Positions 1 to 62,489 of a stretch of DNA of 64,000 bases are shown here, one piece after another. The stretch is from Sphaerolaimus hirsutus (lineage: Eukaryota; Nematoda; Chromadorea; Monhysterida; Sphaerolaimidae). A program made the position numbers and the translations under genes. The stretch lies in NCBI GenBank assembly GCA_964036195.1, contig OZ038453.1, positions 29,082,997-29,146,996 on the forward strand, in the 5' to 3' direction. The notes beneath the pieces are model-generated. The model was not told the origin of the DNA. It did no database searches and was given only the letters and a program-made list of their open reading frames with translations. Every line of letters starts with the position of its first letter. Position 1 is the stretch's first letter.

Positions 1-836
1 AGCGCGCCCGACCAAGGCCACAGAAAGAACGCTCATTTGCGGGGTTTGTTCAAGGTTGTTGCATTGCCGGGTAAGGGTTGGAACTTTGGGACTAAACACA
101 CGCCACAAAACACTAGCACTTGTGAGTTCACCAATCACCCTGGGTGATGGGAATAATTAATTGGCACTACTGTGCTCTTCACTATAAACTGTGCTCTGCA
201 TGTGTCTTGCAGTCGCATGCCGACAATAATTGCCGTTTGCCACTTTTCCACCCATTACCTAGTCCTAAGTAAAAAGCACTTGGTCGGGGAATTTTCTGAA
301 TGTTATCTATCGGGGCGTCTGAGCATTTAACAGAGTCAACACCTGTTAGCTTAACTAGAAACATAAAGCCTTTCTAACCCATTCCCAGACACTGCACCCT
401 TTTGACCAAAAATGTGAACTTGATAAAACCTAAAAATTATAACGCTCGAAAGTACATATTGGGAAATGCAAAAGAAAAACGGAAGTATTCACTTAATTAA
501 CTCAAAATGCGGGTAACCTAATTAGCTTAATTAATGAATCATTAAAATAAAAATTAAAAATTAGCGTCACACGGGAAATAATTAAATAATTAACGGAAAA
601 GAACCAATTAATAAATTCATGGCCGCAGTAGTGTCCATTCGGGCGTACCGTCCTGGGGCTGCGGCTTCGTTGGCGGATTTGCAGTGCACAGCGAACCGCA
701 CGTTCACTGTGACTTCCCTGTGCACCGCGGGTCGTCATTCGGTCGCACATGGTCGTTCTCGAGTCGTCGGAGTGTCTACGCAAAATTGTCGTTACGTTTT
801 TACGCATGATTAGTTAGCCATATTTCTACCTACAAT
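1..836 (-). repeat. 3' LTR of the giant retroelement (truncated by window start)
   Basis: Bases 1-836 recur at 15879-16714 with no difference I can see by eye. The copies diverge right after the shared CTACAAT: CCCACC follows on the left and AGAATAG on the right. The element is coded on the minus strand, so this copy is its 3' LTR and its outer end lies before the window. Read on the minus strand the LTR would begin TGTAGG (TG start), with two shared bases outside it, or ATTGTAGG if those bases belong to it. Full LTR length is unknown because the repeat was still matching at base 1. Confidence 0.9.
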
Positions 837-1415: not shown

Positions 1416-4400
1416 TCAATTTTCACAATTACCATTTTCCATGTGGTGTTCTACCTGTTGCGCTGGAGCTTCCTCCGGTGGCAGTGGGATGGCCTCGACC
1501 GCGTCGTGGTGCTCGGGCGGCGGCGAGGGGGGCTCGGCTACGTTCTGCAGTGCCATGGCCGCCATGTCGTTGCTAATGGGGGAATATTCTTCATTAGGGC
1601 GGTAAACTGGTTCGACAACGGGCACCACTTCCTCCAACACCGGCACACCCTCCTCCCGCGCGTCTGCGGAGGAGTCAGAGCCCGCTGTGGCGGTTTCAAT
1701 GTCAGACAAACATTCCGCCTGCAGTTCTTCTTCGAGGGCCGGGTATCTGTCCGGTCCGACTAGTTCTTTCAAGTCGGCCCGCGGGCGCCATTCCGGAGGC
1801 CAAAATCCCAACACGTTTCCCCAAATTTGGCCTGACTCGTAAGAGTAAATCCGGTCGGCTTTGTGCTCGACCGTCAGAAACCGGTGGAAAAAGGTTGACC
1901 ACAACATGGTCTCGGCGTTGGCCACCACGATGCGCACACATTTGGCGCGGGAGGTGGCTACGTTTCCCCGGGGCAACTCCGCTACAAATCCAACTCTACC
2001 GTACGCCTTCTTGGGATCGGCATCCAGCTGGGCGGAGTCGGTAGGCGGGCTGCCGCGCACGCAGGAAACGATGACCACTTCCGCTTCACGGGCCTGTGCC
2101 TTGTCGGCAGTGATCACGCGGGTGGCCCAGTAAGCCGCGTCGTGTTCTGTATGGGCTACTAGTCGACTGATTAGGGCGCGCGCCTGCGCCGCATAAAAAC
2201 AGACAATTAGCAAACTAGCGGGATCTGTAAGATCTGCCCAGGGCAGGGTGGGATCTTCTTTCACTGTGGCCACGAGGTAGTCGTACAGGTGCAGGATGAT
2301 GCGCAGCTCCTTTTTGTTGATTATGGACATGCCTTCTTTCGATTCGCAGCCCTGGTGCACCAGCGTCGATGACAGCATGACGCCATCCTCGAAGTCGCCA
2401 GGCGCGGGCAACATGGTGGCGCCGTGCGCTGCAGTGTCGTTGTAGGCGCGTAGCAGTCCATTGTACGCCGCCACGGAGTTGGCCTGAATGAGCTGGCGAT
2501 GCCCGCGGAACACTGTTTCCAAGTGAACCACGGGACATAGTTGGTACTGTGTGAGCCTATCAATGAGGGTGGGGTCGGGTTTCAGGACAGGCTCCACCCA
2601 GTCTTGCACGCGAATCATACGCGTCAATTGTTTACTGTCTCCAAATAGAAGCAACATGCCGTTCACTGGGAGCTGAGCCGCCTGAGCCACGCTAATTACT
2701 GCAGCGTCAGACGCCAAAGACGCTTCGTCAATAATTACCGCGCACGCAGTCACACTTTTTATACGGGCGTCGTGGGCGGAGTCCAAAGTGACATGGATTT
2801 GACCGGGCTGCACCACCTCCAAGAACACCCGGTGCAGCCTGACCGTAGCCCTGACATATTTAGACAGCGCCCTACGCAGCACCTTACCCCAAAATCCCTG
2901 ATCAGCTAAACTAGCCTCACCAGCCCGGGCGCCCGCCACGCCTGCCTCGAAGTCATCGAATGGCTGCTCGTCTCCATCGTCGGCGGTGAGAAATGGCACT
3001 TGTTCGGTCAGCTGCGCGCGTATGACGGCGTCGTCCGTGCAGTTGTTGATGATTTCGTCCACCAGTTCGTAGTCCTTCTTGGCGCCGTTGTACTTTTCCA
3101 GCGCTGCCGTCCATTCGGGGCTGAGGCGGACGATGTTGTGGCCGGTTCGCTGTGCTAGGGTGTGCAGGGTTGGCAATTGGGTCGCGGGGGTGGTGTTATA
3201 AGTGGGGTCAGTTTCCCACATGGGACTCAAAACGCGCACCGGAAATGCCGCTCTTAATTTCAAAAATTCTTCAAAACCCTCCAGTTTTTGCATTTCAGAA
3301 AATGGCGTATCAGCCATGGCGGTCCATTTCGCGCGCTCCCGCAATAAAACTTCTAAAGCCCCAAAAATATCCCGCTGCCCTAATTTATTCAGGTTGGTCA
3401 GGGCCCTGCGAGCGCCTTCGTCGGCCGCCGAGTTGACCGTGCACGTGATGAGCGTCGAGTGGTATTTGGCGTTCGGCTGCTTGTCCGATGGCAAGTCGGA
3501 GCCCGCGCGCACCCTGGGTCTCGAGTTATAATAATTATAGCCGCGTGAACACACATACGCCAGTTGATTTTGTGTGGTCGTCTTCCCGGACCCGAAAGGC
3601 GAGTCACACATAATCAAAAGGGGTTTGCGCATTCGCACGGCTGTGATCACAGCTCCTAAAACTTCTACCTGCCCCTGCTGCGGCAAAAACTCACCTAATT
3701 TGGCCTGAATCATGTGTTCGTTTTTTCCTCTGAACAATGATTCGTACAACTCAGTAGCCTCGCGGCTAATGAGCGCCCAGTCAGTTTCGTCATCCAGCAG
3801 ACGCAAATTCAATATCACAGCTAATTGGATTTGCGCCTCCAGGGTGAGTACTTTTGACCCCTGGACCACTTTTGGCACCCAGCCGACCGGCGCTTTGTTC
3901 AGGGCGGCTTGCAGTGATCGCATGGTTCGGTCGTAATTGGGCGAGTCGTTCGAGCCGCGCACCATGTATCTTCCATTCTCCAGGGTTCGGGGCAGCGCTG
4001 ATTGCGACGCCGCCATGTCCAACTTCGCACGCAGCCTTGTAGTGGTAGGCTCTGATTCCACGCTGGTAATTCTAACTGATAGGTTGGGGCTGCCCGCCGC
4101 TGGTTTGTCTTCGTCCGGTCTGGCCAACACCAAGCTCAACACCGACATGGGCGTCGCCTGGTTCAACAGCTGTGTCTGCGTGTTCACCTGCTCCAGCAAA
4201 CGCATGCGCTGTTCTTCTGGTCCTTCGAAAGTGTCAGCTTGCAACTCTTCTGGGTCCGGGCGGCGCACCATAATATCGCATGCAGTGCCCTGCGGCGTGT
4301 GCTCCCAGGACACATGCGCGCACACGTCCGTTGCGCGTTTCGCCCGAAATCGCAAAAATGACTCGTTATAGCAGTGAGCCGCTGCTAAAATGCCCAATTT

Positions 4401-5387
4401 ATACCTGAGAAACGAGTCCATGTTGTCTCTGTTCTCTGTGTCTGGCTGGATGCCCGATGTGCTGATATCCTCGGCCGTGGCGACCTGCAGCCCGTACGCA
4501 TGGCCGTAGAATTCGTCGCCGAACACGCCCAAATCGTTTAGGTCGTGATATTCGACGTGGGCCAGCCCCAACTGCCCAGCACTCAAATTTTCCACTCTGC
4601 TGTCACTCACATACTCTCTGTGCAAAATGACCAACTTTTCCGGCCCGGCATCACCTCGCTCCGCCGCGCCCAGCGGTTCCAGATTCTTGTAATTCGACGG
4701 CGTGAAGGCCGCTCGCAGCCGCGCTGTTTTCCAGTCGCTCGTGTAGGGCTGGTAGCCGGAAGTGTCGCCGCGCGTCAATGTACGTGCCGCTTGAGTGACG
4801 CGCCGCGTGCCCTGCGTACTCACGACCACGGGGGCGGCAACGTTTAAGGGGCATTTTGTCTGATTACCCCATATCGCGACACCGGTAAACTCCCAGTACC
4901 GGGGATTTTCTATTTTTTGTGCGATTGCGGTCGCCGAGAAACGCATCCCGTGGCGCACTAGGGGCAGGAACATCGAGGGGTGTTGTTTCTGAATTTTCGC
5001 GCACAAATCCACCAACTGGGTGGTCCGCTTGTCCCTAGCCGCCTTGGCCCGCTTATTCGAATAATAAAAATACGGATAAGCTTCATCCGCATTCACCCAC
5101 TGCTCGTTTTCGCTGAGTATCGCCATCGTCTGCTCAGAAATTCTCACATGGCACTGATACTCAACATGCCCGTCCGCGCCCGAGTCAATATACACCCTAT
5201 CTACCCAACCTTCGAATTTCCCTCTGCTGGGGTAGATTTCCGGTCCATTTTGCATCTGCTGCGCGCGGTAAAGTTGTCGCGGGGGAATGGTTCCGCCGCC
5301 GCAGGCACCGTGTGTATTTGTCTCCTTGGATTTAATGGGCGGGGCGTCTGTACCTTCAAATGGGCGTTTGCGAGAGGCCGAAGCCAT
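1416..5387 (-). CDS. Retroelement ORF3: UPF1-like superfamily-1 helicase
   Basis: A 1323-residue protein with a good start: ATG with A at -3 and G at +4, followed by a basic SRKRPF stretch. Helicase motifs appear in SF1 order. Walker A (GSGKTT) is near residue 599; Walker B DEAS near 887; GDSKQL (motif III) near 915; QAREAEVVIVSCVR (motif V) near 1096; RGNVATSRAK (motif VI) near 1140. The DEAS box, the Q-x-R-E motif and the arginine motif match the UPF1/DNA2-like SF1B group. The roughly 550-residue N-terminal part is unrecognised. The last 100 residues are acidic and proline-rich. ORF3 lies 3' of integrase and inside the LTRs, the place env normally occupies. The motifs look intact, so ATP-driven unwinding or translocation on nucleic acid is likely. 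Its role in the element's cycle is inference. Confidence 0.85.
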   Translation of the reverse strand: MASASRKRPFEGTDAPPIKSKETNTHGACGGGTIPPRQLYRAQQMQNGPEIYPSRGKFEGWVDRVYIDSGADGHVEYQCHVRISEQTMAILSENEQWVNADEAYPYFYYSNKRAKAARDKRTTQLVDLCAKIQKQHPSMFLPLVRHGMRFSATAIAQKIENPRYWEFTGVAIWGNQTKCPLNVAAPVVVSTQGTRRVTQAARTLTRGDTSGYQPYTSDWKTARLRAAFTPSNYKNLEPLGAAERGDAGPEKLVILHREYVSDSRVENLSAGQLGLAHVEYHDLNDLGVFGDEFYGHAYGLQVATAEDISTSGIQPDTENRDNMDSFLRYKLGILAAAHCYNESFLRFRAKRATDVCAHVSWEHTPQGTACDIMVRRPDPEELQADTFEGPEEQRMRLLEQVNTQTQLLNQATPMSVLSLVLARPDEDKPAAGSPNLSVRITSVESEPTTTRLRAKLDMAASQSALPRTLENGRYMVRGSNDSPNYDRTMRSLQAALNKAPVGWVPKVVQGSKVLTLEAQIQLAVILNLRLLDDETDWALISREATELYESLFRGKNEHMIQAKLGEFLPQQGQVEVLGAVITAVRMRKPLLIMCDSPFGSGKTTTQNQLAYVCSRGYNYYNSRPRVRAGSDLPSDKQPNAKYHSTLITCTVNSAADEGARRALTNLNKLGQRDIFGALEVLLRERAKWTAMADTPFSEMQKLEGFEEFLKLRAAFPVRVLSPMWETDPTYNTTPATQLPTLHTLAQRTGHNIVRLSPEWTAALEKYNGAKKDYELVDEIINNCTDDAVIRAQLTEQVPFLTADDGDEQPFDDFEAGVAGARAGEASLADQGFWGKVLRRALSKYVRATVRLHRVFLEVVQPGQIHVTLDSAHDARIKSVTACAVIIDEASLASDAAVISVAQAAQLPVNGMLLLFGDSKQLTRMIRVQDWVEPVLKPDPTLIDRLTQYQLCPVVHLETVFRGHRQLIQANSVAAYNGLLRAYNDTAAHGATMLPAPGDFEDGVMLSSTLVHQGCESKEGMSIINKKELRIILHLYDYLVATVKEDPTLPWADLTDPASLLIVCFYAAQARALISRLVAHTEHDAAYWATRVITADKAQAREAEVVIVSCVRGSPPTDSAQLDADPKKAYGRVGFVAELPRGNVATSRAKCVRIVVANAETMLWSTFFHRFLTVEHKADRIYSYESGQIWGNVLGFWPPEWRPRADLKELVGPDRYPALEEELQAECLSDIETATAGSDSSADAREEGVPVLEEVVPVVEPVYRPNEEYSPISNDMAAMALQNVAEPPSPPPEHHDAVEAIPLPPEEAPAQQVEHHMENGNCEN

Positions 5388-5615: not shown

Positions 5616-8363
5616 TTAGTCGTCGCCGTATAATTCACTGTAAGAAGGGGGAATTAAATATTCACTGGTTGCCTTGCAACGGTCCGCATGAACTACATAA
5701 ATTTTCTTATTAATATTGTTGAATAAAGTCACTAATGGGTGGGCATAATCAATGCACTCATACGGGCCGATAAAGCGAGGCGCGAATTTCTTACTGGGGC
5801 CCGTCAACTGAGTAATACGCGGCGTGTATACGCGTACCGCTTGTCCGCGTTGCACATTCAATCGGCGCGCACGGCGATTGGCGTAAAATTGCTCTTTTTG
5901 CTGCGCCTTTGCTAAAGCGGTATGCGCTGCTTCGCGTGCTGTGGTCAGACGCGCGCCTAATTCATTTATAAGAGCGCGCTTATGCGGCAATGAGGGCAAT
6001 GCCTCGTTGTCAGGGGGAGGCTCGATCATTCGCTCCCACATGGACGCAGCAGGCTTGCCAAATAGCAACGCATAGGGGGTGGTTTGCAAGGAAGGGTGTT
6101 TCGATGTATTGTACGCGTGTACAGCGGCGCCTAAATGTATGTCCCAATCGTCATGTGTACGATTTACATAGTGTGATACTATTTCCATCAGAACACCATT
6201 CCTACGTTCCACCATTCCGTTGCTCTTGGGGGTGTACGCAAATGATGTATGTTGGGTCGCGTTCAAATATTGTAGAAGCTTGGCAAAAGTGCCCTCGGTA
6301 AAGCTAGGGGCGTTATCACTGAGTATAATGGCCGGCACACTAAATATAGGCAAAATGTGCAACAGAAATGCAAATGATACTGTGTCTTGTTTTATGTCGG
6401 GAACGGGCACAGCAATTCCAAAACGTGTGCACTGATCAACAAATACTAACACATGTCGGTTTCTGCGTTTCGTGGTTAGTAAAGGTCCTATTGCGTCTAC
6501 CGCTATCACATCACCTGGCCTTTTGGCTACCTGGCGGCACACCATTTGAGTTCGCATTGCCGCTCTGAGACCTTTCTTGGCGTTGCACGAAGGGCAGGTG
6601 GCAACCCAGCGCGCACTTTCTGGCCGCATTCCTGGAAACCACGCGAATTCCTGCAACCTTTCGAATGTTTTTATTATTCCTAAATGGCCCGCCGTAGGGT
6701 GATTGTGAGCTAATTCTAACACGAATGGAACTAATTCCGATGGAATACATACGGGGTCGTATAATTGTATACCTGGTATCTGGGACGTTCCCGCTTGGCG
6801 ACGTAATAAACCGTATTGGTCAATAAAATACGGCGCGGCGCTGTAAAAATTATCTGCGCGACACACTTCTATAGTTGTAGCTATGTATGGTTCTTCTGCT
6901 TGTAGTCGCTTCAATTTGTCAACCGAAGTCATTGGAGGTAGTGCCATGATTGTACTGCGCTTAGTTGCACTCGTCAAACCCGGAACAACTTCATTTCCGG
7001 CTCCTGAACCACCAGCCATTGTTCCGGTTCCAGGCGCTTCCGCATTCCGCTGCCGCTCTCGCAGCCCGGGTGACTCCGCCTCCTTTCGCCCGCGCGTCCG
7101 GTCGCTGATTGGTCGCAGTAACTCCGCCTCCTCGTTTACGCTGATTGGTCGGTACGCTGTCCTGCTTGCCGCAGCTACCGTAACCTGCCTATCGTGCGGG
7201 ATAGCGATTTCACGGCACGTAACTTGTGCGAACTGCTCAAAAGCCTCGTCCAGGTCCTTTTTCTCGTCGAATACCACTGGTGCGTCTTGTCTTCTAGATA
7301 ATGCATCTGCTAATTCGTTGCTTTTTCCCCGCAAATGCTTGAACGTGATTTGGTACGGCGTAATTGCTAAAGCGAACTTGTGCAGCATGGCGTGCGGGGT
7401 AGTCTCTAAATTAGGATTCTTTACCCACGAAATACTCTTGGCGTCAGTCCAGACTTCAAAGGGCCGTCCCGCCAGATAACAATGCCAGTTACGTATGCTT
7501 TCGTAGATTGCACACGCTTCCAGGGAAATCGCTGGCCATTTGCTTTGGGTTGCTCCTAACTTCCGGCTGTAAAAGGCACATGCATGTAGTATTTTCTCGT
7601 CCTCTGCTCGTTGTGCTAACACGCCTGCAACAGCAATTTTAGAGGCATCCGTGATAATTATAAACATTCGTTTGGGATCGGGAAACTGCAGACATGGGCT
7701 TCCTAATAATGCTTCCTTGAGCTTATGGAAAGCTTCCAGTGCCTTGGGTTTCGATGTCAAATCCACCGGGGTGTCGCTATTGTAATTTTCTCTTGGTCCC
7801 GTACGCGTGAGATTTGACAAGGGTACAGCTAGCTCTGCGCATCTGTGAATCATGCGTCTGAAAAAACCGATAGCTCCCAGAAATCCCTTTACCTCTTTTA
7901 CGGTAGTGGGTACCGGCCAGTCCTGAATAATGTGCCGTTTATCATCTGGTACGCACACGCCGTCACGACCAATCATAAATCCTAGAAAGCGTACAGCTGT
8001 GACGCGTGCGAAAAAACACTTTTTCGGACTAATTTTGAAATTATTCCTAATTAATCTTTCCAACACCTGTCCTATGTCATATAAATGGGTTTCCCAGGTT
8101 GCACTATAAATTAGTAAATCGTCGATGTATAGTAGCACATTTCTATGTATTAAACCGGCCATGGCTAGTTCAAAACAGCGCTGCGCTAAACTAGGTGAGC
8201 ATTTTAATCCCATGGGTAAACGTTTCAGTTGAAATTGTCCAAAAACATTTCTGAATGACGTGATGTGTCGATCATCTGGGTGCAAAGCAATGTTATAGAA
8301 AGCTTGATTTATGTCAGCACTGCTAAAAATACTTGCAGCTACATAAAGATTCGACTGTTTCAT
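5616..8363 (-). CDS. pol: pol second frame: RT (C-terminal part), RNase H, integrase
   Basis: A 915-codon frame continuing pol. The RT palm core has YIDD near residues 79-82 and the LPMGLK segment upstream. An RNase H region of Ty3 type begins near 233 (TDAS) and ends with the DALSRR motif near 353. After a low-complexity linker comes integrase: an HHCC zinc module (HNHPTAGH near 549, CPSC near 587), catalytic D near 620 (VDAIGP), D near 680 (SDNAPSF) and E near 716 (MVERRNG), then a C-terminal GPY/F module (FIGPYE near 862). These place it in Ty3/gypsy (Metaviridae). All expected catalytic residues are visible. The first ATG at 8363 is probably not a real start, since the frame begins inside the RT domain and overlaps the upstream frame by 41 bases. 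Confidence 0.92.
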   Translation of the reverse strand: MKQSNLYVAASIFSSADINQAFYNIALHPDDRHITSFRNVFGQFQLKRLPMGLKCSPSLAQRCFELAMAGLIHRNVLLYIDDLLIYSATWETHLYDIGQVLERLIRNNFKISPKKCFFARVTAVRFLGFMIGRDGVCVPDDKRHIIQDWPVPTTVKEVKGFLGAIGFFRRMIHRCAELAVPLSNLTRTGPRENYNSDTPVDLTSKPKALEAFHKLKEALLGSPCLQFPDPKRMFIIITDASKIAVAGVLAQRAEDEKILHACAFYSRKLGATQSKWPAISLEACAIYESIRNWHCYLAGRPFEVWTDAKSISWVKNPNLETTPHAMLHKFALAITPYQITFKHLRGKSNELADALSRRQDAPVVFDEKKDLDEAFEQFAQVTCREIAIPHDRQVTVAAASRTAYRPISVNEEAELLRPISDRTRGRKEAESPGLRERQRNAEAPGTGTMAGGSGAGNEVVPGLTSATKRSTIMALPPMTSVDKLKRLQAEEPYIATTIEVCRADNFYSAAPYFIDQYGLLRRQAGTSQIPGIQLYDPVCIPSELVPFVLELAHNHPTAGHLGIIKTFERLQEFAWFPGMRPESARWVATCPSCNAKKGLRAAMRTQMVCRQVAKRPGDVIAVDAIGPLLTTKRRNRHVLVFVDQCTRFGIAVPVPDIKQDTVSFAFLLHILPIFSVPAIILSDNAPSFTEGTFAKLLQYLNATQHTSFAYTPKSNGMVERRNGVLMEIVSHYVNRTHDDWDIHLGAAVHAYNTSKHPSLQTTPYALLFGKPAASMWERMIEPPPDNEALPSLPHKRALINELGARLTTAREAAHTALAKAQQKEQFYANRRARRLNVQRGQAVRVYTPRITQLTGPSKKFAPRFIGPYECIDYAHPLVTLFNNINKKIYVVHADRCKATSEYLIPPSYSELYGDD
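8323..8363 (-). other. Overlap and one-base shift between the two pol frames
   Basis: The upstream frame stops at a TAG (8323-8325) that follows a run of five T on the coding strand (complement of 8325-8329). RT similarity continues in the next frame, shifted by one base, from this same point. A phenylalanine codon in the T run could re-pair after a +1 slip and the next codon is a stop. That resembles known +1 sites, but a simple one-base indel in a homopolymer gives the same picture. Confidence 0.8.
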
Positions 8364-11300
8364 CTAAGCGGGGTAATGGGAATTGGGGAGCGTGCAAAAC
8401 AGCGTTCAGGCGTCTGTAATCGATTACCATCCGCTTTGATCCATCCGGTTTGGATACCACCAGCGTGGGGGCACAATACGGGCTCGTACTGGGTTCCACG
8501 ATGTCGTGCTCGATGAGGCATCTCAAATGATTTTCTAAGTATTGCTGATCATCCAGACTCAACCGGTACATTCTGCAAGCAATCGGCTTTTTGTCCACCA
8601 ATTGCAGCCGGTAGTCCACTAATTCGCTGTAGCCGATGTCATACTTGTGTCGGGCAAAAGCTTCTTTGTACTGCAAAATCACCTTTTTCAGTTCCTCTCT
8701 GCGTTCGTCCGTCAATGTTTCTGGCACAGTAAATTCCATCACGTGTCCATCTGGACATGCAACTTGCAGTGGAGGTCCTAATTTGTCTTCGGCTACTTTG
8801 GGGGGAGGTTCAGTCGCTTGAACCTGTCGACACACATCTCTGTCATAGCACTGCTTCACCCATTCAGCGGGAGGGTCTCCAGGTTTCACCTTCAGCACGC
8901 AGTCCACTGGTTCGACCACTGCAATGCGCTGTCCTACCTGTAGCACTACGGGCTGGTTTCGTACATTTGCACATCTCACCTGAAACACAGGGGCACTAGT
9001 TTCATAGGCCGCTGAAGCAGCCATAACGCCACAGCGTTCACCTACCGTATCCAATCCCATGACCGTAAATAACCTTTCATCCATGGGGGCAGATAATTTT
9101 GCGGTCACTAGCGCTTCATGTCTAGCCAGAATTTCTATTTTTTCATTCACAATAGCGTAAATTCTGCGCTGCTGCACTTCCGGGTCTGGGTTATCAAAGG
9201 GAATGATCGCATTAGCCGTAGGGATTCGTAATTCCCTTGCAGGTAGGTCCACTACCATGTGCCGTAAGACATCTGCACCAATTAGAATTTCACCAGCTAA
9301 TCCGTTCACTGCCTGAAACACAATCCCGAAGGTGTGGTTTCCCATGGTTACCGGTACTTCCATTTGTCCCAATACCAAAAGTTTCGAGTCTGCTGCACAC
9401 CTAAGGGCTCCAATAGGTGAAACTTCATCATGCTTAGTAGCCTTTTCCTTGTGTCGCATCAGCACGTCTCTGTTGCATAATGAACGCATGGCGCCTGTGT
9501 CCAGTAGACATCTTCGATATTCTCTCCCATCAATGGTTATGGTAATGGATGGGCTGTAGTACACATGCACAATCTCTTCACGTCGATTGGCTACTTGATG
9601 GATGTTGTCTCTTTCTTCCGTCGAGAAAGTGATCATGCACACCGATTCTTCTTCCAGATCGTATTTTCTGTTGATACTGTATTGTATAGCGGGAAAACGA
9701 CGCGCGCCCGTGAGTGCGGGCATGCCACTTGGCATTCCCACGCACGGGTTAATTACCGTTCTTACCTTTACCTGTTCGCTAGGGCGGTCCTCAGCCAATT
9801 CGACAATGATATTGGACTTTTCTTCTGTCTTTGGTCGCCTTTTGATTTTTTCCTTTGCCCTGTTCACCAAAGTCACGGCCGTTTCCGGCGCTGCAGCCAT
9901 GAGCGCGGCTAGTAAATACTGCATGGTGACCAGTGCACATATCAGATAGATCCATACTTGTAGCCAGGTGCGCCAGGTGTCAAAATCCCACCATCCCAGC
10001 GCTAATACTGATTTTGCCAAAGTTCGATGTCTTTGCATGTGTGATTCCACTCTCGGCTCCGCCCCCTGCGTGATTTGCCGCACGATAGAATACGCGTGCC
10101 ATACGTCATTCAGGGTGGTCGTCGGCAATAATTCTGACAAGTTGTACATAGTCGTGGCGGCAAAAATCTGATGATGCACATCCCTGACTTTTTCCTGCTG
10201 CCATTTCTGCGGAAAACTGTGGGTGTTATACATAGGCAAATGTTCCAGGCCGCCGACTTCCGGTAGATATTTGTACCATTGTCCATTTAACATTACCACA
10301 CGATTGTGCGCATTGGTGCATGAGCCCGGGATCGCTTGAAAATGCAAAATGTTTGTCAACCTATTCATGTGCAACGTCACATTCTGCCCGTGTACGCTAA
10401 CTTGCACAGGTACTGTTTCGTAGCATTCTGGAGACTTCTCCTCTTTCATGATCTCGTATGTTTTTACCGCAAAACATTTGTGAACCAGAAATCCGTCCGG
10501 CGCGGGTTTGGCAATTATTTCGTTATCATTCATGTACCATCGGGCTGTCGTAGTTGCATGTTCGCTCATAGCCAGGCGCACAAATTCCTGGAAGTGTTGC
10601 ACATTCTTGCAGGTGGCTACGGCCTGCGCGCGCATGGTTTGTTCTGCTGTTTCGTATACCGCCTGCATGCTGGCTGCTAATTGGCCTGCGCTCACTATTC
10701 CCAGCGTGGGTCGACCTTGCGCTCGTTTTTGTCTGACGCTTCGAATCACTGCCTTCGCAAATGGCGCCACTACAATATCCTGGTCCGATTTCCATAATTT
10801 AATGCCGCATGATTCAACCTCTTCATGTGCTCTGAAGGACAGTGATAGTGTATGATCATCAGCTAGCCAGATGTCCTGTCTAATGCGTCCATGCATTTCA
10901 CGCCATTTTTCATAAGGGCATTCCGCCTTCGGGTTCGGCTTCCAAGTTAATTGGCTGCCGTCTTCTAGCGTGCATGCACCCAATTCATAATTGCACTTGC
11001 TAACCTCACCCAGCGTGCTTTGCATGGTGTTGGCTCCATATCTCATTCGTACTTCCCCTCGAAACAGCCCACAGTGTGGCGTCGTTTCACTCACCCATTT
11101 GCAACAGTATAATCCATGTCCTGAGTAGCTAACATTGGTGGGGTACTGGGTGTCCCATGCGTTGTCCAAATCACTCACAGGGGTCATGGGCCCATTGTTG
11201 CACTTGTGATATTTAATCATGCCTTCGCACTCGGCGGCGCCCACAGATCGGGGGTTAGAATCAAACTTTTCCAGCGTGACGTCGCCCCAGAAGTTCTGAT

Positions 11301-14300
11301 ACGTCTTTGCCGTTCGAATCGAGGCCACACACCTGTGTGCTGCCGCACGATATTCTACCATATTTCGCTTGTAGATTGTCAGTGTCAATTTTCGTGGCCG
11401 TTCTAATGACGCCGTGGTGTCAACAATAGCCGTGCAATTGGGTAGAGGGGGGTACGTGTATAAATCGTAGTGATCTGTCAAATCGCTGCAGAGCAGTGGA
11501 AACGAGGGCATGGTAGTCGCGCCCGCGCCCGGCAAAAAGGCTAATCCCATTATAATTAACCCAACTGCCAATACGAAAAACAGCGACTGTGCGACCTGAG
11601 GCATGTAGGGGGGTTCTGAATATGCGCGCGGCGCGGGGCGCACCCCTTCCTCAGTAGACAGAAAACCCATATACCTGTCTACCTGGTTGCTGGAGCCAGT
11701 ACGTGGCGGCAGGGCGGCCGGCGTGGCGTACAAAAACGGGTCCAGGCTGATGTTCATGAGTACATCCAAGGGCACCTCAGTCAACGTGTCCGAGTGGTCG
11801 TCTGCAGGGCAATTAGGCCACAATGTACAGTCCGTTTCTCTCAAATCATGCATTCCAATCCTGCGTAGAAAGGCCAGCCAAGTAGTTCGAAACAGGTAAC
11901 CTTTTTCAGTTCGCATGTATGCCCATGGTTTGATCCAGAATTCCCGCTCCTGCGCGAGCACATGCATTCCAGTAGTGCGCTGCTGCTCTTCGGGTGACTC
12001 TGGGACCAGTTCGTCAGGTTCCTCATCCTCTAATTCCAGGCCTTGCATCACAGGGATTAATTTATTAACGGGACGTATCATCATGCAGCGATCATCTTCG
12101 CGCACATGCATGGTCATACCAGTCGTACTGGACACTCGCGTGGGGTTCAGCGACTCTACGTGTGGGTTACTTACCTGTACCGGTTGCATGTTATATTGTT
12201 GCATGCGCCCATCTGGTCCCATAGCCATCCAGTTAGCTGGCGGCGTTTGATAAGCCATCATTTGCGGTTGCATGTTCATATCGCCAGCCCTCTGTACCGT
12301 CTGCGCTGGTTGTACAGGCATCGGCTGCGCTGGTTGCCACTGCGGATATGCGTATTGCATGGGCACCATACCTGGCTGCATCGCTTGGGCTTGATTATTT
12401 CCCTGATAGCCACCACGTTGTCCTCCGCCGCGCCCACGTCCATTTCCTCTGGATGCTCCGCCGCCGCGGCTCCTTTTGAAGTACTGTTCCCTCTGTTCTG
12501 GGGTTAGTTTGGGGCACTCATATCTGATATGCTCTTCAGAGCCACATTCCCAGCATCCTTTGTCAAATTTTCGTGGGGGCAATTTAGGGGGGTCCCTATT
12601 CAATCCCAAAAGTTTACCTTCCAACGCGCCCAGCTGCGCTAATTTCTTCGCTATCTCTTGGTGCACAGAGTCGAATTTGGCAACACTCTCAGTCATTTTC
12701 TGTTCCATTGTTTCTAACGTCTTGTCGGCCTGGGACGGCAGTCCAGCCATGGCGGGCATGTTTAGCGCCATCAACCTGTCCATTACCTTGTCTGTGGCGC
12801 TGGCAACCACATCCTGTTTGGATTTTTCTCCCTTATTCTGGCTCTGTTCTGCTTCCAGAAAGCTCTCTTGTGCGCGTGCGTTGTCAACCATCTCTTTCCA
12901 AGTGATAGACGCCGTGACAGGTACATTGCGCCGAATTTCATTTCTCAGTCCTCCATGAAATTTTATCATGCACGTGTCACCTCGTTTTTCATGACCCATG
13001 CCTGGATAGGCGCGTTTTATCAACTTTTCCAAACGTACCGCCCATTCCAGTACCGACTCATCTGCGCCCTGTCGCGTCTCAAAAATCTCTCTCTGTGCAT
13101 GATGTTTGTCATTCGGATTTTCATAGAACTTTTCCAGTGCCTGCATCATGTCCTTGTAGTTCAGGTCGCGCAATTCTCTGTACCGCGTGTTGAAAATGGC
13201 TCTGGCACTGCCCTTCAGAAACAATTTCACCAGCGGCTTCCGCTCCTGTAACTTTATGCGCAGCGCATCACATACCGTGTCCCAGCTCCTTCTCCAGTCC
13301 CTGAAACCCTCATTTGGCTTGCCGCGAAAATATCCACATTGCTGTGCTAGGGCTGTGATGACTGCCGCATTACTTTGCTCTAATTGCCAATTTTGTCCCG
13401 GGTCCGTGGGCCACGCCACTTCCGATGTAGCTGACGAGTTCCTGGAGGATGCTGGCGAACGGGATCGAGCGCGTCGCTGCGTAACAGTTCTCACCTGGTT
13501 CGTTCCAGCTGCCGACGGGGGCGCCGCTGGTGCCGTTGATGACTGTAAGGGCGCTGCTTGACCATTGGTCAACACTATCGGCTGCTGGCCACTAGCCGGT
13601 GAATTTCCTCCCAGCGTCGCATTCTGATTTTGTACGGCTTGATTGTGCTGTTGGTACGCAGTCGTCAGGTCAGCTATATCGTCGCTATGTACACTGTGGT
13701 GCGCTTCGAATTCCTGCAAAAAATGTTCCACCCTAGGTACCTCGGCGACTGGGTCACTTCCCCATAAATTCATAGCAATTTTAATTAATGCCACCATACG
13801 CAAGTCCCCTGGTTCACCATTCTGCGAGAAAGCACCAACCGGTCTCGCTTGACTCATCATGTTTGCCCATTTCTTCGCCGCTGCACATGCCTTTTTAGGT
13901 GTCCATTGTGCACAAGATGGCGTTGTTTGCACCGGGTCCAGGTCCATTATGGTAGCTTGGTAAATTAAGTCCGTATTAGTGACCTTTGCGTACCTGTCTT
14001 CCAGTGCCGGGGCCGCCGTCTGGTTCGCGCCGTTGTTTGTCATTCTGCTTGCGGGGCTGCTAATGATTATCACGGGGGGATTATTTGAAATTTCAGTCTT
14101 AATTAACTGGCGTCTAGCCTTTGCAGTTGCGCTCTGCGATCTCGACTGGTCGCTCGATAAATTCCGGCTACTGTTACCTGATACGTCTCTCGGCGTCGAA
14201 GTGCTCTTCGGTGGGCTTAACTGCAGCGCCGGGGAAGTGTCTCCACTCTGCGTCGCTGTCTCTAACAGTTCCGCTACGGTATTTTCAATCACGGGAAATT

Positions 14301-14919
14301 GATCTGCAGTAGCTCCAAGCTCAGCTGCAATCACAGGGTAATCACGTTGAATCGACGGCTGCCCTAGAGGCTCGCTGTCACCAACGTATCCGTCTGAACC
14401 GACTTCAGAACCCGATCGCACTCCAGGCGATATGGATGAGCTGCCCGCGCTCCAACCCAGTGTCCTCCGAAGCTTAGACCACTTACCTGTCTTTCCTGCT
14501 TCCTTTCCTGCAGCTTGTCTGCTTGTCCCAGGCGCTTCTTCCGCTTCTGCGCTGGACGTTAGCTGCCGCGCCGCTGCCGGTACAGCTGGCGTCTTCCACT
14601 GACTGAAACTGTCTGGCGCAGGCCCTGCACCTTCAACCGTTGATAACCTGATTACCGGGGTGTCCTCAGCTGTCTGTCCAGACCAGCGTTGACTTTCACT
14701 CTCCTCTAGCGCTTCCGGCGCCTCTGTTTCAGGGTTAACCGAATCGTTCGACTCACTGTCTCCTGCTTGACTCTCAGCTGCAGCAAGTTGTGCGTCCACT
14801 TCTTGCCCAGCCTTCTGTTGTCGCGCGCGCCTTCGTGCTTGTTTCTGCTTCTCCAACGCAGCGTGCCAAACTTGTTCTATGGTGTCCCCTTGTAAGCTTG
14901 CTGGCCCCCTCGATCTCAA
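8323..14919 (-). CDS. gag-pol: Gag / Env-like glycoprotein / protease / RT N-terminal polyprotein
   Basis: A 2198-codon frame, numbered here from 14919. Residues 1-500 are charged, Ser/Glu/Pro-rich and disordered-looking. Residues 511-690 resemble a retrotransposon Gag capsid. A CCHC zinc knuckle (C-x2-C-x4-H-x4-C) sits near 788-801, followed by an RG-rich and a Met/Pro/Gln-rich stretch. Residues about 1107-1678 form an Env-like glycoprotein, annotated separately. A retropepsin follows, with DTGA at about 1807 and ILIGAD near 1880. RT begins near 2060 and the frame stops within RT. The start is unclear: the codon at 14919 is TTG, and the frame is open to a TAA near 15008 with no ATG before 14043, which is preceded by A at -3. 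Gag may start at 14043, or an ATG may be spliced on from upstream. Confidence 0.88.
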   Translation of the reverse strand: MRSRGPASLQGDTIEQVWHAALEKQKQARRRARQQKAGQEVDAQLAAAESQAGDSESNDSVNPETEAPEALEESESQRWSGQTAEDTPVIRLSTVEGAGPAPDSFSQWKTPAVPAAARQLTSSAEAEEAPGTSRQAAGKEAGKTGKWSKLRRTLGWSAGSSSISPGVRSGSEVGSDGYVGDSEPLGQPSIQRDYPVIAAELGATADQFPVIENTVAELLETATQSGDTSPALQLSPPKSTSTPRDVSGNSSRNLSSDQSRSQSATAKARRQLIKTEISNNPPVIIISSPASRMTNNGANQTAAPALEDRYAKVTNTDLIYQATIMDLDPVQTTPSCAQWTPKKACAAAKKWANMMSQARPVGAFSQNGEPGDLRMVALIKIAMNLWGSDPVAEVPRVEHFLQEFEAHHSVHSDDIADLTTAYQQHNQAVQNQNATLGGNSPASGQQPIVLTNGQAAPLQSSTAPAAPPSAAGTNQVRTVTQRRARSRSPASSRNSSATSEVAWPTDPGQNWQLEQSNAAVITALAQQCGYFRGKPNEGFRDWRRSWDTVCDALRIKLQERKPLVKLFLKGSARAIFNTRYRELRDLNYKDMMQALEKFYENPNDKHHAQREIFETRQGADESVLEWAVRLEKLIKRAYPGMGHEKRGDTCMIKFHGGLRNEIRRNVPVTASITWKEMVDNARAQESFLEAEQSQNKGEKSKQDVVASATDKVMDRLMALNMPAMAGLPSQADKTLETMEQKMTESVAKFDSVHQEIAKKLAQLGALEGKLLGLNRDPPKLPPRKFDKGCWECGSEEHIRYECPKLTPEQREQYFKRSRGGGASRGNGRGRGGGQRGGYQGNNQAQAMQPGMVPMQYAYPQWQPAQPMPVQPAQTVQRAGDMNMQPQMMAYQTPPANWMAMGPDGRMQQYNMQPVQVSNPHVESLNPTRVSSTTGMTMHVREDDRCMMIRPVNKLIPVMQGLELEDEEPDELVPESPEEQQRTTGMHVLAQEREFWIKPWAYMRTEKGYLFRTTWLAFLRRIGMHDLRETDCTLWPNCPADDHSDTLTEVPLDVLMNISLDPFLYATPAALPPRTGSSNQVDRYMGFLSTEEGVRPAPRAYSEPPYMPQVAQSLFFVLAVGLIIMGLAFLPGAGATTMPSFPLLCSDLTDHYDLYTYPPLPNCTAIVDTTASLERPRKLTLTIYKRNMVEYRAAAHRCVASIRTAKTYQNFWGDVTLEKFDSNPRSVGAAECEGMIKYHKCNNGPMTPVSDLDNAWDTQYPTNVSYSGHGLYCCKWVSETTPHCGLFRGEVRMRYGANTMQSTLGEVSKCNYELGACTLEDGSQLTWKPNPKAECPYEKWREMHGRIRQDIWLADDHTLSLSFRAHEEVESCGIKLWKSDQDIVVAPFAKAVIRSVRQKRAQGRPTLGIVSAGQLAASMQAVYETAEQTMRAQAVATCKNVQHFQEFVRLAMSEHATTTARWYMNDNEIIAKPAPDGFLVHKCFAVKTYEIMKEEKSPECYETVPVQVSVHGQNVTLHMNRLTNILHFQAIPGSCTNAHNRVVMLNGQWYKYLPEVGGLEHLPMYNTHSFPQKWQQEKVRDVHHQIFAATTMYNLSELLPTTTLNDVWHAYSIVRQITQGAEPRVESHMQRHRTLAKSVLALGWWDFDTWRTWLQVWIYLICALVTMQYLLAALMAAAPETAVTLVNRAKEKIKRRPKTEEKSNIIVELAEDRPSEQVKVRTVINPCVGMPSGMPALTGARRFPAIQYSINRKYDLEEESVCMITFSTEERDNIHQVANRREEIVHVYYSPSITITIDGREYRRCLLDTGAMRSLCNRDVLMRHKEKATKHDEVSPIGALRCAADSKLLVLGQMEVPVTMGNHTFGIVFQAVNGLAGEILIGADVLRHMVVDLPARELRIPTANAIIPFDNPDPEVQQRRIYAIVNEKIEILARHEALVTAKLSAPMDERLFTVMGLDTVGERCGVMAASAAYETSAPVFQVRCANVRNQPVVLQVGQRIAVVEPVDCVLKVKPGDPPAEWVKQCYDRDVCRQVQATEPPPKVAEDKLGPPLQVACPDGHVMEFTVPETLTDERREELKKVILQYKEAFARHKYDIGYSELVDYRLQLVDKKPIACRMYRLSLDDQQYLENHLRCLIEHDIVEPSTSPYCAPTLVVSKPDGSKRMVIDYRRLNAVLHAPQFPLPRLDETVESLCSCKYF
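9885..11604 (-). other. Env-like glycoprotein domain inside the polyprotein
   Basis: Between the zinc knuckle and the protease lies a hydrophobic segment (residues about 1107-1131), then a cysteine-rich ectodomain of about 515 residues. It has at least four N-glycosylation sequons (NCT, NVS, NVT, NLS). An RQKR furin-type site near 1396-1399 separates an SU-like half from a TM-like half. A second hydrophobic span (about 1651-1678) is followed by basic KEKIKRRPK. This is the layout of a membrane fusion glycoprotein. An ATG at 11604 just before the first hydrophobic segment could start it separately, but its -3 base is T. I cannot assign the glycoprotein to a known fusion-protein class from sequence alone. 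Confidence 0.7.
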
Positions 14920-15878
14920 TTCCCTTTGGGGTGACTCGTTATCCGTGAAGCCGTTTTTTGTAGGGGCGTTGATCAGGCGCCCCAGACAGAAAACTTTATG
15001 GCTTGCTTAGGAAACCACTCGCTACGCTACCAGTTGTCAGATATTTTACGTTTTTACTAATTTTACTACTTTCCGTTTTTACCACAAAAATACGCCACTC
15101 GTCGAGTTTTGCCGCGGCGGAGAATTGCAAATTCCGGTCCCTTTGCGCTTCCGCTTGCGTGCTTAATTAAATAAATAATTGGTTTTTATGGTACGGGGAT
15201 GTTCACACGCAAATCAGGAACGGCGCCAGTACCCCTTGGGGTCCTGACAGTTCCTGAGGACGGACACGGCAACTTACCACTCCCTTCCGTAACTGCTGCC
15301 GGCGGTTTTACTTCGGTTAATTGTTAAATGCCGTAATTAGTGCAAGCCGAAATTAATAAAATTCAAATTAAAATTCAAGCAGTTAGTATGCTTCAGGGGG
15401 ACCAAGTTGGGTTCACGGGAAACTTTATTTTAGCGATGTAGTCAGAGTCAATTTCACAATAGCTCAAGTGAGTCGTATAGCCTCTAGTGGGTGAAAAAAT
15501 GTAAAATCAGCGCGTTTTATAATCACCAAAAACCTACCATAAGCGAAACGAATACTAAATCAAAGACACAACAATTAACCGTAATAAGCGAATTAATAAG
15601 GCAAATTCAATGATCACTGGAAAACCGTAAACATAGCGTACGAGGCACAAGTAAATTAATTCAATGCGGGAAAAATAACTAATTAATCGAACGGGTGCAA
15701 ACGTAATTTAAATCAAGCGTAAAGTAACTGTGGTTATCACTGACGTAATTAAAATGCAATTCATCTCAAAGGTGAGTGTCGTAAACTGGGTTCTATTCAG
15801 AGGTTACGGTACAAATCAGAGCAGGTGGTGTGACACGTGTTATCAACCTGCGCCCCTTTAGGTGAAAAATATTTTTAT
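14920..15878 (-). other. 5' leader of the giant element
   Basis: About 960 bases between the visible 5' LTR edge and the first long frame. There is no long ORF other than the ATG-less extension to about 15008. The primer-binding site could not be fixed. On the coding strand a TGGGGCGCC string near 14992 starts with TGG, but its complement does not read as a normal tRNA T-stem, and no CA lies before it. Part of this interval may belong to the LTR, because the LTR's inner edge cannot be seen in the truncated copy. Confidence 0.5.
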
Positions 15879-16714
15879 AGCGCGCCCGACCAAGGCCACA
15901 GAAAGAACGCTCATTTGCGGGGTTTGTTCAAGGTTGTTGCATTGCCGGGTAAGGGTTGGAACTTTGGGACTAAACACACGCCACAAAACACTAGCACTTG
16001 TGAGTTCACCAATCACCCTGGGTGATGGGAATAATTAATTGGCACTACTGTGCTCTTCACTATAAACTGTGCTCTGCATGTGTCTTGCAGTCGCATGCCG
16101 ACAATAATTGCCGTTTGCCACTTTTCCACCCATTACCTAGTCCTAAGTAAAAAGCACTTGGTCGGGGAATTTTCTGAATGTTATCTATCGGGGCGTCTGA
16201 GCATTTAACAGAGTCAACACCTGTTAGCTTAACTAGAAACATAAAGCCTTTCTAACCCATTCCCAGACACTGCACCCTTTTGACCAAAAATGTGAACTTG
16301 ATAAAACCTAAAAATTATAACGCTCGAAAGTACATATTGGGAAATGCAAAAGAAAAACGGAAGTATTCACTTAATTAACTCAAAATGCGGGTAACCTAAT
16401 TAGCTTAATTAATGAATCATTAAAATAAAAATTAAAAATTAGCGTCACACGGGAAATAATTAAATAATTAACGGAAAAGAACCAATTAATAAATTCATGG
16501 CCGCAGTAGTGTCCATTCGGGCGTACCGTCCTGGGGCTGCGGCTTCGTTGGCGGATTTGCAGTGCACAGCGAACCGCACGTTCACTGTGACTTCCCTGTG
16601 CACCGCGGGTCGTCATTCGGTCGCACATGGTCGTTCTCGAGTCGTCGGAGTGTCTACGCAAAATTGTCGTTACGTTTTTACGCATGATTAGTTAGCCATA
16701 TTTCTACCTACAAT
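15879..16714 (-). repeat. 5' LTR of the giant retroelement
   Basis: The direct-repeat partner of 1-836. The match ends at 16714, and host DNA starting AGAATAG follows. On the element strand a GC-rich stretch (16500-16690) holds a 101-codon frame starting with ATG at 16685. This sense frame contains possible donor strings such as ACGGTACGC, so it could supply a 5' exon with an ATG for the ATG-less main frame. That is inference. The target duplication cannot be checked because the other end is outside the window. Confidence 0.9.
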
Positions 16715-17104
16715 AGAATAGAAAGAATACAATGTGGAGTTGAGAACATTATATTCTGAGAATGTAAGAACACATTAAGAATACATTCAAAGATGCAATC
16801 TGTCACCCAGTTGCCACATTATAAAATACAGAGTTGGACACACAATTTTACATTCGACACTCCATAGAAAGCATAAACCATTTTATTCTGACCTTCGTTT
16901 CAGAAATTCATATTTGCTGAAGGATAAGAAATTCAAAAATGATGATCGAAATTGTTTGCTTCCTGGTGCCGATCCCAGACCCTGTAAAGTGTCAAATGTT
17001 AAGTAAAGTGTCAATTGTCATGACAAATGAAAAGTAAAGTGTTAATTGTGATGCAAAGTTCAGTAATCTTAAATTTAACAGGACAGTTTACACTGCACTT
17101 AGCA
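16715..17104. other. Host flank, no gene seen
   Basis: AT-rich DNA next to the retroelement. From about 16975 it contains fragments of a dispersed AAAGTGTCAA / TGTCATGACAAAT family that recurs near 33090-33440. Confidence 0.4.
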
Positions 17105-22691: not shown

Positions 22692-22918
22692 GGGGGTGCA
22701 CTGATACGCACATCTCCCCGTTACGCACATTTGCCCGTTTTTTTCACTTGACACTTTTTCAAGTGATTTTCAGATATGAGTAAAGTGAAAAAAGTTGCGC
22801 AATGACATTAGTGAACTTTTTTCACTTCACTCATATCTGAAAATCTCTTGAAAAAGTGTCAAGTGAAAAAAACGGGCAAATGTGCGTAACGGGCAGATGT
22901 GCGTATCAGGCCTGCCCC
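22692..22918. mobile_element. Near-perfect palindromic MITE (copy 1)
   Basis: A 227-base element with arms of about 100 bases: GATACGCACATCT, GTTACGCACATTTGCCCG and AGATATGAGTGAAGTGAAAA-like blocks. A 9-bp (or 8-bp) duplication TGACGCTTC flanks it. A second copy is at 52724-52949, with its central loop inverted relative to the ends. Confidence 0.85.
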
Positions 22919-43980: not shown

Positions 43981-44265
43981 TTAGCCATTGACATTTATCG
44001 GTGACTGGTTGGCAGCAACTAACTTCATTCTGGTCAGTTTGACTTGTTGTCCATTGACATTGATGGAGTTCAGCAACGATGGGTGAATAAGTGTTGCATC
44101 AGCACCGGGGTCCACACGCCAAGTGTCAGCACAGGTTCCATTCATGGACAGTGCCTTGCAGTCAGCATTCTGCTTCGAGCAGTTGTTTGGTAGATCCATC
44201 TCAATCAAATCCACATGTTCAGTGTCTGGGTCCAGTGGACCCAGTAGATCCAGTGGACATTTCAT
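43981..44265 (-). CDS. Retropepsin-like protease fragment of element A
   Basis: A 94-codon frame containing WRVDPGADATLIHPSLL, which fits the aspartic protease active-site region (D-x-G-A-x-x-T/S-x-I), with a P in place of the usual S/T after D. It ends before the ILGxD part, which continues in the degraded stretch downstream. Gag lies directly upstream on the same strand, in a different frame. Confidence 0.6.
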   Translation of the reverse strand: MKCPLDLLGPLDPDTEHVDLIEMDLPNNCSKQNADCKALSMNGTCADTWRVDPGADATLIHPSLLNSINVNGQQVKLTRMKLVAANQSPINVNG

Positions 44266-44369
44266 AAGTCAACTTTGATATGATGTTCCTCGGAAACAAT
44301 CTTCAAGTACATGCAGTCTTCAGTGTTGTGTGTGGGCAGCTCGCGCCAGGTGTGCCATCTGTCAGGTTG

Positions 44370-62110: not shown

Positions 62111-62182
62111 GCCTCTGTAGTCTAGTGGTTAGGGCACTCGTGTTCTATACGAGAGGAGCGGGTTCGATTCCCGCCTGAGGCA
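62111..62182 (+). tRNA. tRNA-Arg(TCT)-like gene inside the left terminal repeat
   Basis: 72 bases fold as a cloverleaf: 7-bp acceptor stem with one T-T mismatch, 4-bp D stem with GTGG loop, 5-bp anticodon stem with loop GTTCTAT, 4-base variable region, and 5-bp T stem with loop TTCGATT. The anticodon reads TCT. A-box-like and B-box (GGTTCGATTCC) promoters are present. Position 32 is G, which is unusual. The D arm resembles Glu/Asp-type tRNAs, so identity is uncertain. A hairpin AGTGCAATTTTGCACT follows. Confidence 0.75.
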
Positions 62183-62417: not shown

Positions 62418-62489
62418 GCCTCTGTAGTCTAGTGGTTAGGGCACTCGTGTTCTATACGAGAGGAGCGGGTTCGATTCCCGCCTGAGGCA
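62418..62489 (+). tRNA. tRNA-Arg(TCT)-like gene inside the right terminal repeat
   Basis: Identical to the copy at 62111-62182, including the acceptor mismatch and the 3' hairpin. Identity of both repeats fits copying of one terminal repeat during reverse transcription. Confidence 0.75.

What the first reader, a model, noticed from the sequence alone, without database searches (positions are those of the whole stretch)
9885..11604. Env-like glycoprotein embedded between nucleocapsid and protease
In retroviruses env follows pol. Here a hydrophobic anchor, a cysteine-rich N-glycosylated ectodomain with an RQKR site, and a second membrane span lie in the same open frame as Gag upstream and protease-RT downstream. 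The topology is consistent: Gag cytosolic, ectodomain luminal, protease-RT back in the cytosol. This gag-env-pro-pol order would be highly unusual. It could mean a membrane-spanning polyprotein or a separately spliced Env.
Basis: partly seen in the sequence, partly recalled or inferred. Interest (0 to 1): 0.92.

Follow-up and report, generated by a model that had tools for sequence, protein, structure and literature searches.

The report
Fusion protein inside Gag-Pol frame
A recently active retrovirus-like element in an unidentified genome carries its cell-entry-type membrane protein in the middle of its Gag-Pol frame instead of after it, and many copies keep that protein intact, so the odd gene order looks functional rather than accidental.

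Summary
A Ty3/Gypsy-type LTR element (minus strand, identical 1,678-bp LTRs) has one 2,198-codon frame reading Gag, hydrophobic segment, Cys-rich ectodomain with sequons and RQKR, second hydrophobic segment, protease, start of RT. The block matches Pfam Monjiviricetes_fusion above its cut-off; a diverged relative in the same genome also matches herpesvirus gB, so a class III fusogen is the best reading. No fold could be computed. At least 69 copies carry the block. In 60 examined, RQKR is kept in 60, every ectodomain cysteine in 59 or 60, and dN/dS is 0.05 (Gag 0.03, PR-RT 0.035). The Gag-Env and Env-PR linkers are similarly constrained (0.06, 0.05), which points to translation straight through. 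Three consensus splice donors, one just behind Env in the piece's strongest synonymous-constraint spot, suggest spliced Gag and Env forms too. Other PF24664 families of this genome also sit in long frames; nine of 68 matches share theirs with Gag, but about 9 kb apart, so their order may be conventional. RNA, protein, structure and host identity are untested.

The parts
15035..16712 (-). 5' LTR, 1678 bp, TGTAGG...TGACA; identical to the 3' LTR; flanked by CTAT (16713-16716), which also follows the 3' LTR
1..834 (-). 3' LTR, first 834 bp; it continues 843 bp beyond the window's left edge
15015..15032 (-). putative primer-binding site (TGG...); tRNA not identified
8323..14919 (-). ORF1, 2198 codons from TTG: Gag-Env-protease-start of RT; first ATG at 14043
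12991..13230 (-). Gag capsid domain (PF03732, E 3.5e-6, over cut-off)
12508..12558 (-). CCHC zinc knuckle (PF00098, E 0.012, below cut-off)
14485..14493 (.). donor-like CAG|GTAAGT on the minus strand, last exon base 14487 (SD1), upstream of the first ATG (bases 14489-14481; conservation not tested)
12169..12177 (-). donor-like CAG|GTAAGT, last exon base 12175 (SD2); exact in 52 of 60 copies
11851..11863 (-). acceptor-like CAG|GAT, first exon base 11860 (SA1), followed by an ATG at 11853 in the Env frame; CAG and ATG kept in 60 of 60 copies
11527..11583 (-). first hydrophobic segment of Env (signal/anchor), after Met 11604
9946..11520 (-). Env ectodomain: 16 Cys, four sequons; PF24664 match at 11031-10255
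10723..10734 (-). RQKR, furin-type site; 60 of 60 copies
9889..9945 (-). second hydrophobic segment of Env
9682..9801 (-). strongest synonymous-constraint spot of the sampled piece (6 variable codons, 17.5 expected, family-wise p 0.006)
9760..9768 (-). donor-like AAG|GTAAGA, last exon base 9766 (SD3); exact in 58 of 60 copies
9707..9748 (-). hairpin just behind SD3; the 58-base stretch 9757-9700 is identical in 52 of 60 copies
9259..9546 (-). retropepsin-like protease (PF13975 E 0.01, PF00077 E 0.044, all below cut-off; LLDTGA visible)
8322..8328 (-). UUU UAG C at the end of ORF1; RT continues in ORF2's frame; TTTTTAG in 57 of 57 copies that cover it
5616..8363 (-). ORF2: rest of RT, RNase H, integrase
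5637..5640 (-). acceptor-like CAG|TGA, first exon base 5637 (SA2), near the end of ORF2; conservation not tested
1416..5387 (-). ORF3, 1323 aa, superfamily-1 (UPF1/IGHMBP2-like) helicase domain

Best explanation
A recently mobile Ty3/Gypsy-type endogenous retroviral element whose envelope protein, most likely a class III fusogen related to Monjiviricetes and herpesvirus-gB glycoproteins, is encoded inside the Gag-Pol frame between nucleocapsid and protease. Unspliced RNA is translated as Gag-Env-PR-RT: Gag cytosolic, the segment at 11583-11527 starting ER insertion, the ectodomain luminal with furin-type cleavage at RQKR, the segment at 9945-9889 returning the chain so that protease-RT is cytosolic, where protease can free Gag and Pol. 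RT passes into ORF2 at a fixed UUU-UAG-C site. Alternative splicing probably also makes Gag alone (12175 to 11860) and Env alone (14487 to 11860, with 9766 to 5637 ending Env). Shown: the frame, the Env features, the copies, amino-acid constraint on Env and both linkers, conserved donor motifs. Inferred: class III fold, topology, cleavage, frameshifting, splicing.
For: One intact frame. Env features kept in 59-60 of 60 copies. dN/dS 0.05 for Env, 0.03 Gag, 0.035 PR-RT. Linkers 12174-11861 and 9765-9547 at 0.06 and 0.05 in the ORF1 frame, 1.1 or more in the other two frames. PF24664 over cut-off; a diverged relative P0006 matches PF24664 at 3.5e-16 and gB at 1.7e-8, and its 16 weak PDB matches are gB-type molecules. 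Three MAG|GTAAGW donors on the sense strand, none antisense, 0.19 expected, 0 of 300 simulations with three. Strongest synonymous constraint at the donor behind Env. RT nearest to Ty3 in PDB.
Against: No RNA or protein data. No structure. P0002 itself has no gB or PDB match and exceeds the PF24664 cut-off by only 2.6 bits. gB is below its own cut-off for P0006 (34.7 against 43 bits). Copies were ranked by Env similarity. Acceptors come from a home-made score; 11485, inside Env, outscores 11860 (4.6 against 3.6), and the order 14487-9766 of donors was tested in copies for two of three. Looser donor patterns also occur (5 sense, 1 antisense). The 40-codon tail before the donor is less constrained (0.24). 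The hairpin is not unusual with its flanks (z -0.55). Protease is below Pfam cut-offs.
Confidence: 0.62

Rival explanations
1. Env is made only from spliced RNA, and Gag-Pol is made from RNA in which the Env region is spliced out; the shared frame is incidental.
For: Consensus donors at 12175 and 9766 bracket the block, with synonymous constraint at the second; Env has its own Met before the hydrophobic segment, kept in 60 of 60 copies.
Against: The linkers 12174-11861 and 9765-9547 are constrained as ORF1-frame codons (0.06, 0.05), which a pure intron would not need. None of the 22 best-scoring acceptors lies between 9766 and the protease at 9546; weaker ones were not listed.
Confidence: 0.2
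2. The frame is translated through, but Env works as a membrane anchor for Gag and Pol assembly rather than as a fusogen for cell entry.
For: The element has multiplied to at least 69 near-identical copies within one genome, which needs no cell entry in principle.
Against: RQKR, all cysteines and sequons of a large ectodomain are kept in 59-60 of 60 copies; the best-scoring families are viral fusion proteins.
Confidence: 0.12
3. Chance: an endogenized viral glycoprotein fell in frame into one element copy and amplified as a passenger.
For: Glycoprotein fragments of Jingchuvirales are often found beside LTR elements in arthropod genomes (PMC10084718, passages).
Against: dN/dS 0.05 at mean pS 0.10 over 60 copies and near-complete retention of Env features. 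Other PF24664 families of the genome also lie in long open frames.
Confidence: 0.03

Closest known systems
Errantiviruses / env-carrying Ty3/Gypsy elements
   Same: Ty3/Gypsy-type pol with an added viral-type Env; many copies
   Different: Env lies between Gag and protease in the same frame, and is PF24664/gB-like; errantivirus Env follows pol and is baculovirus-F-like (recalled; envelope origin also in PMC12440569, text read in part)
Anakin (BEL/Pao with a chuvirus-type glycoprotein)
   Same: Glycoprotein of the Jingchuvirales kind, which PF24664 covers (recalled)
   Different: Here the pol is Ty3-like and Env is inside the frame; PMC10084718 (passages) reports no clear capture by Gypsy or Copia elements
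Tas of Ascaris (BEL/Pao with a herpesvirus-gB-like Env), recalled only
   Same: gB-like Env in an LTR element
   Different: Env after pol and BEL-type pol, as recalled; no paper was found for it
TelKA elements of bdelloid rotifers
   Same: LTR element with captured fusion glycoprotein
   Different: Env is a paramyxovirus-F-like class I protein in a third ORF (PMC5408684, passages)
Flavivirus polyprotein (capsid, glycoproteins, enzymes in one chain), recalled
   Same: Works-like comparison only: capsid first, glycoprotein threaded through the ER, cytosolic enzymes after it
   Different: Unrelated; this is a reverse-transcribing LTR element

Membership tests
Ty3/Gypsy (Metaviridae) | RT-RNase H of the Ty3 kind | tested here: met
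   Best PDB match is Ty3 Gag-Pol, E 2.6e-56; no RT tree was built
Ty3/Gypsy (Metaviridae) | Order protease-RT-RNase H-integrase | tested here: met
   protease models below cut-off; RT is split over ORF1 and ORF2
Ty3/Gypsy (Metaviridae) | LTRs with TG...CA and a 4-6 bp target duplication | tested here: met
   TGTAGG...TGACA and CTAT, one insertion examined
Errantivirus | env downstream of pol | tested here: not met
   Env is between nucleocapsid and protease; downstream of pol is a helicase ORF
Errantivirus | Baculovirus-F-type Env | tested here: not met
   The only Pfam match of the block at E up to 1 is PF24664
Class III fusogens (Monjiviricetes/gB type) | Sequence match to a family model over its cut-off | tested here: met
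   PF24664 29.6 bits, cut-off 27; relative P0006 58.7 bits, plus gB below its cut-off
Class III fusogens (Monjiviricetes/gB type) | Class III fold with bipartite fusion loops | not tested
   Structure prediction failed or was switched off
Troyka | CG...CG LTR ends, 3-bp duplication, no envelope (PMC12440569, parts 1-3 of 5 read) | tested here: not met
   TG...CA, CTAT, Env present
Retroviridae | gag-pol-env order with spliced env | tested here: not met
   Order is gag-env-pro-pol; splicing itself is not testable with these tools

The most novel reading that the evidence does not exclude
A reverse-transcribing element that expresses itself in flavivirus style: capsid, class III entry glycoprotein and protease-RT made as one membrane-threaded chain, with splicing and a +1 frameshift inside RT setting the Gag : Env : Pol ratio, and with relatives in the same genome that carry Env in single frames of up to 6,806 codons.
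Probability: 0.42. Interest if true: 0.9.

Novelty: new variant of a known kind. Interest (0 to 1): 0.77.

Why it matters
In retroviruses and in the env-bearing retrotransposons I know of, env follows pol. If Env can sit between Gag and protease in a constrained frame, Pol may reach the membrane joined to Env, and the place of env is less fixed than assumed. It would also add a Ty3/Gypsy-type element with a Monjiviricetes/gB-type glycoprotein, a capture that a 2023 arthropod survey did not clearly find in Gypsy or Copia elements (PMC10084718, passages). The many near-identical copies make it testable with RNA from the host.

Tried and rejected
Protein database searches with the Env block, with the ORF1 Env region and with the two-member alignment gave nothing at E 0.01; an IMG/VR scan gave nothing. 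Rfam at gathering thresholds had no match in 8000-17000. NCBIfam had nothing for the Env piece at E 0.1. Troyka was rejected on termini, duplication and Env. Chance insertion was rejected on constraint. Literature: ten searches; in what was listed I saw no gag-env-pol element, and the pair gag-env-pol plus retrotransposon gave 0 papers. A directly relevant survey (Chary and Hayashi, eLife 2025, cited in PMC13172572) was not held, so I do not claim that this order is unpublished. Not achieved: RT and helicase positions in sister families, host identity, an RT tree, a structure, copies sampled without regard to Env.
Full report
What is there. The element lies on the minus strand. Its LTRs are 1,678 bp, TG...CA, identical (0 mismatches; the 3' LTR runs beyond the window's left edge), with a 4-bp CTAT duplication, so the insertion is recent. 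ORF1 (8323-14919) is one 2,198-codon frame; ORF2 (5616-8363) holds most of RT, RNase H and integrase; ORF3 (1416-5387) has a superfamily-1 helicase domain. By sequence the nearest solved RT is Ty3's. The host is not identified; the genome has 348 Mb in 762 contigs.

The Env block. From Met 11604: a hydrophobic segment (KD19 2.50), an ectodomain with 16 cysteines, four N-X-S/T sequons and RQKR, then a second segment (KD19 2.07) and a basic tail. In the three pieces that cover ORF1, only these two segments exceed 1.6. Pfam gives Monjiviricetes_fusion (PF24664) at E 2.3e-7, 29.6 bits against a cut-off of 27. PDB chains gave only chance-level matches (best E 0.45, CD44), and no relative was found in the protein database or IMG/VR. 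Of the neighbours, Retrotrans_gag is over its cut-off; the zinc knuckle and the protease models are below theirs, so protease rests on weak matches, position and a visible LLDTGA.

A diverged relative sharpens the identity. PF24664 against the same genome gave 68 scored matches of 1,557 candidates, each over the cut-off, and none in 14 control genomes. The frames range from 481 to 6,806 codons; recurring sizes are 2,900-2,911 and 5,676-5,844. One 2-kb piece from a 6,806-codon frame (L062) encodes P0006: hydrophobic segment, Cys-rich ectodomain, second segment, frame open at both ends. It matches PF24664 at 3.5e-16 and herpesvirus gB (PF00606) at 1.7e-8, the latter at 34.7 bits, below its cut-off of 43. 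Its 16 PDB matches up to E 1 (0.012 to 0.93, all weak) are gB-type molecules (that GP110 and BALF4 are gB is recalled). P0002 and P0006 are 23% identical in a global alignment, BLASTP E 0.001 over 89 residues, and match the same columns of PF24664 (188-448 and 192-445).

Not a one-copy accident. At least 69 copies of the block exist (69 of 1,238 candidates scored); 57 of 69 sit in frames of 2,216 codons or more, three of them with one stop read through. I examined 60 of the 69 over 4.9 kb. DNA identity to the window copy goes down to 94.5%. 46 of 60 have neither stop nor gap over that piece, 10 have gaps only, 4 have a stop. Mean pS is about 0.10; dN/dS is 0.03 for Gag, 0.05 for Env (N part 0.07, C part 0.03) and 0.035 for PR-RT. 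RQKR is kept in 60 of 60, 15 of 16 cysteines in 60 and one in 59, sequons in 59 or 60. The copies were ranked by similarity to the Env protein, which favours low Env dN; Gag, most of the linkers and PR-RT lie outside the query and behave alike, though linked. Copies without Env could not have been found by this search.

Read-through or splicing? The linker between nucleocapsid and Env (12174-11861) has dN/dS 0.06, 11860-11605 has 0.03, and 9765-9547 between Env's tail and the protease has 0.05, in the ORF1 frame; the other frames give 1.1 or more in these three pieces. The 40-codon tail before 9766 is looser (0.24; another frame 0.42). This is what translation straight through Gag, Env and protease predicts. 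At the same time the element has exactly three MAG|GTAAGW donor matches on its sense strand (14487, 12175, 9766) and none on the other; 0.19 are expected and 0 of 300 order-2 Markov sequences had three. A looser pattern gives five sense and one antisense. The donor behind Env's tail is exact in 58 of 60 copies and the one at 12175 in 52 of 60; 14487 lies outside the sampled piece. The donor behind Env lies in the most synonymously constrained spot of that piece (9801-9682: 6 variable codons, 17.5 expected, family-wise p 0.006 under independent codons), with a hairpin (z -2.07 alone; -0.55 with flanks; 58 bases identical in 52 of 60 copies). Candidate acceptors by a home-made score are 5637 (5.2) and 11860 (3.6), but 11485 inside Env scores 4.6. 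At 11860, CAG and the following ATG in the Env frame are kept in 60 of 60. Read by eye, 9766-to-5637 would end Env at once with TGA and 12175-to-11860 would end Gag after four codons; early stops are common by chance, so I give this little weight.

How it most likely works. Unspliced RNA gives a Gag-Env-PR-RT chain threaded twice through the ER membrane, Gag and protease-RT cytosolic; cytosolic protease and luminal furin-type cleavage separate the parts. Spliced RNAs supply extra Gag and Env. RT passes into ORF2 at a UUU-UAG-C site found in 57 of the 57 copies that cover it, a candidate programmed +1 frameshift; synonymous variation is low there too, without reaching significance (family-wise p 0.21). 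Shown: sequence, copies, constraint. Inferred: everything about RNA and protein.

Sister families and a caution. In 9 of the 68 PF24664 matches a Retrotrans_gag match lies on the same contig and strand in a frame of equal length (3,641 to 5,844 codons), 8.6-9.0 kb upstream (compared by eye; 150 gag matches were scored), against about 2 kb in the window family. That leaves room for pol between gag and env, so those frames may have the conventional order, merely fused. The RT and helicase searches that would settle it did not complete (PF13087; PF17919: 116, 121, 123, 128, 132, 136, 140). The gag-env-pro-pol order is claimed for the window family only.

Known or new. Errantiviruses, Anakin, TelKA and (recalled) Tas carry captured Env, after pol as far as I know. 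PMC10084718 (passages) found no clear Gypsy or Copia capture of Jingchuvirales glycoproteins. My ten literature searches did not show a gag-env-pol element, but a main survey of env-carrying Gypsy elements was not held. I call it a new variant of a known kind.

Noticed in passing
window 8322-8328 (-): RT is split over two frames at UUU-UAG-C; the TTTTTAG is in 57 of 57 copies that cover it, so it looks like a fixed +1 frameshift site inside RT rather than damage.
   Followed up: partly
window 1416-5387 (-): The element carries a 1,323-aa UPF1/IGHMBP2-like superfamily-1 helicase ORF after pol, unusual for an LTR element as far as I know.
   Followed up: partly
window 14046-14919 (-): The first 292 codons of ORF1 hold no ATG yet score as coding by codon usage (0.11 per codon, other frames negative), so Gag may start at a non-ATG codon or on a spliced leader; a consensus donor sits at 14487.
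   Followed up: partly
G000 places, e.g. L062: Several PF24664 Env families in the same genome lie in very long open frames (up to 6,806 codons), some with Gag in a frame of the same length.
   Followed up: partly
window 43981-45350 (-): ORFs that look like a Gag and a retropepsin (DPGAD...) of another, degraded LTR element (by eye).
   Followed up: no
window 22692-22918: Inverted repeat with 105-nt arms, 93% complementary and 17 nt apart, MITE-like.
   Followed up: no
window 62111-62182 and 62418-62489 (+): Two tRNA-Arg(TCT) genes about 300 bp apart; their 3' ends do not match the element's primer site (by eye).
   Followed up: no
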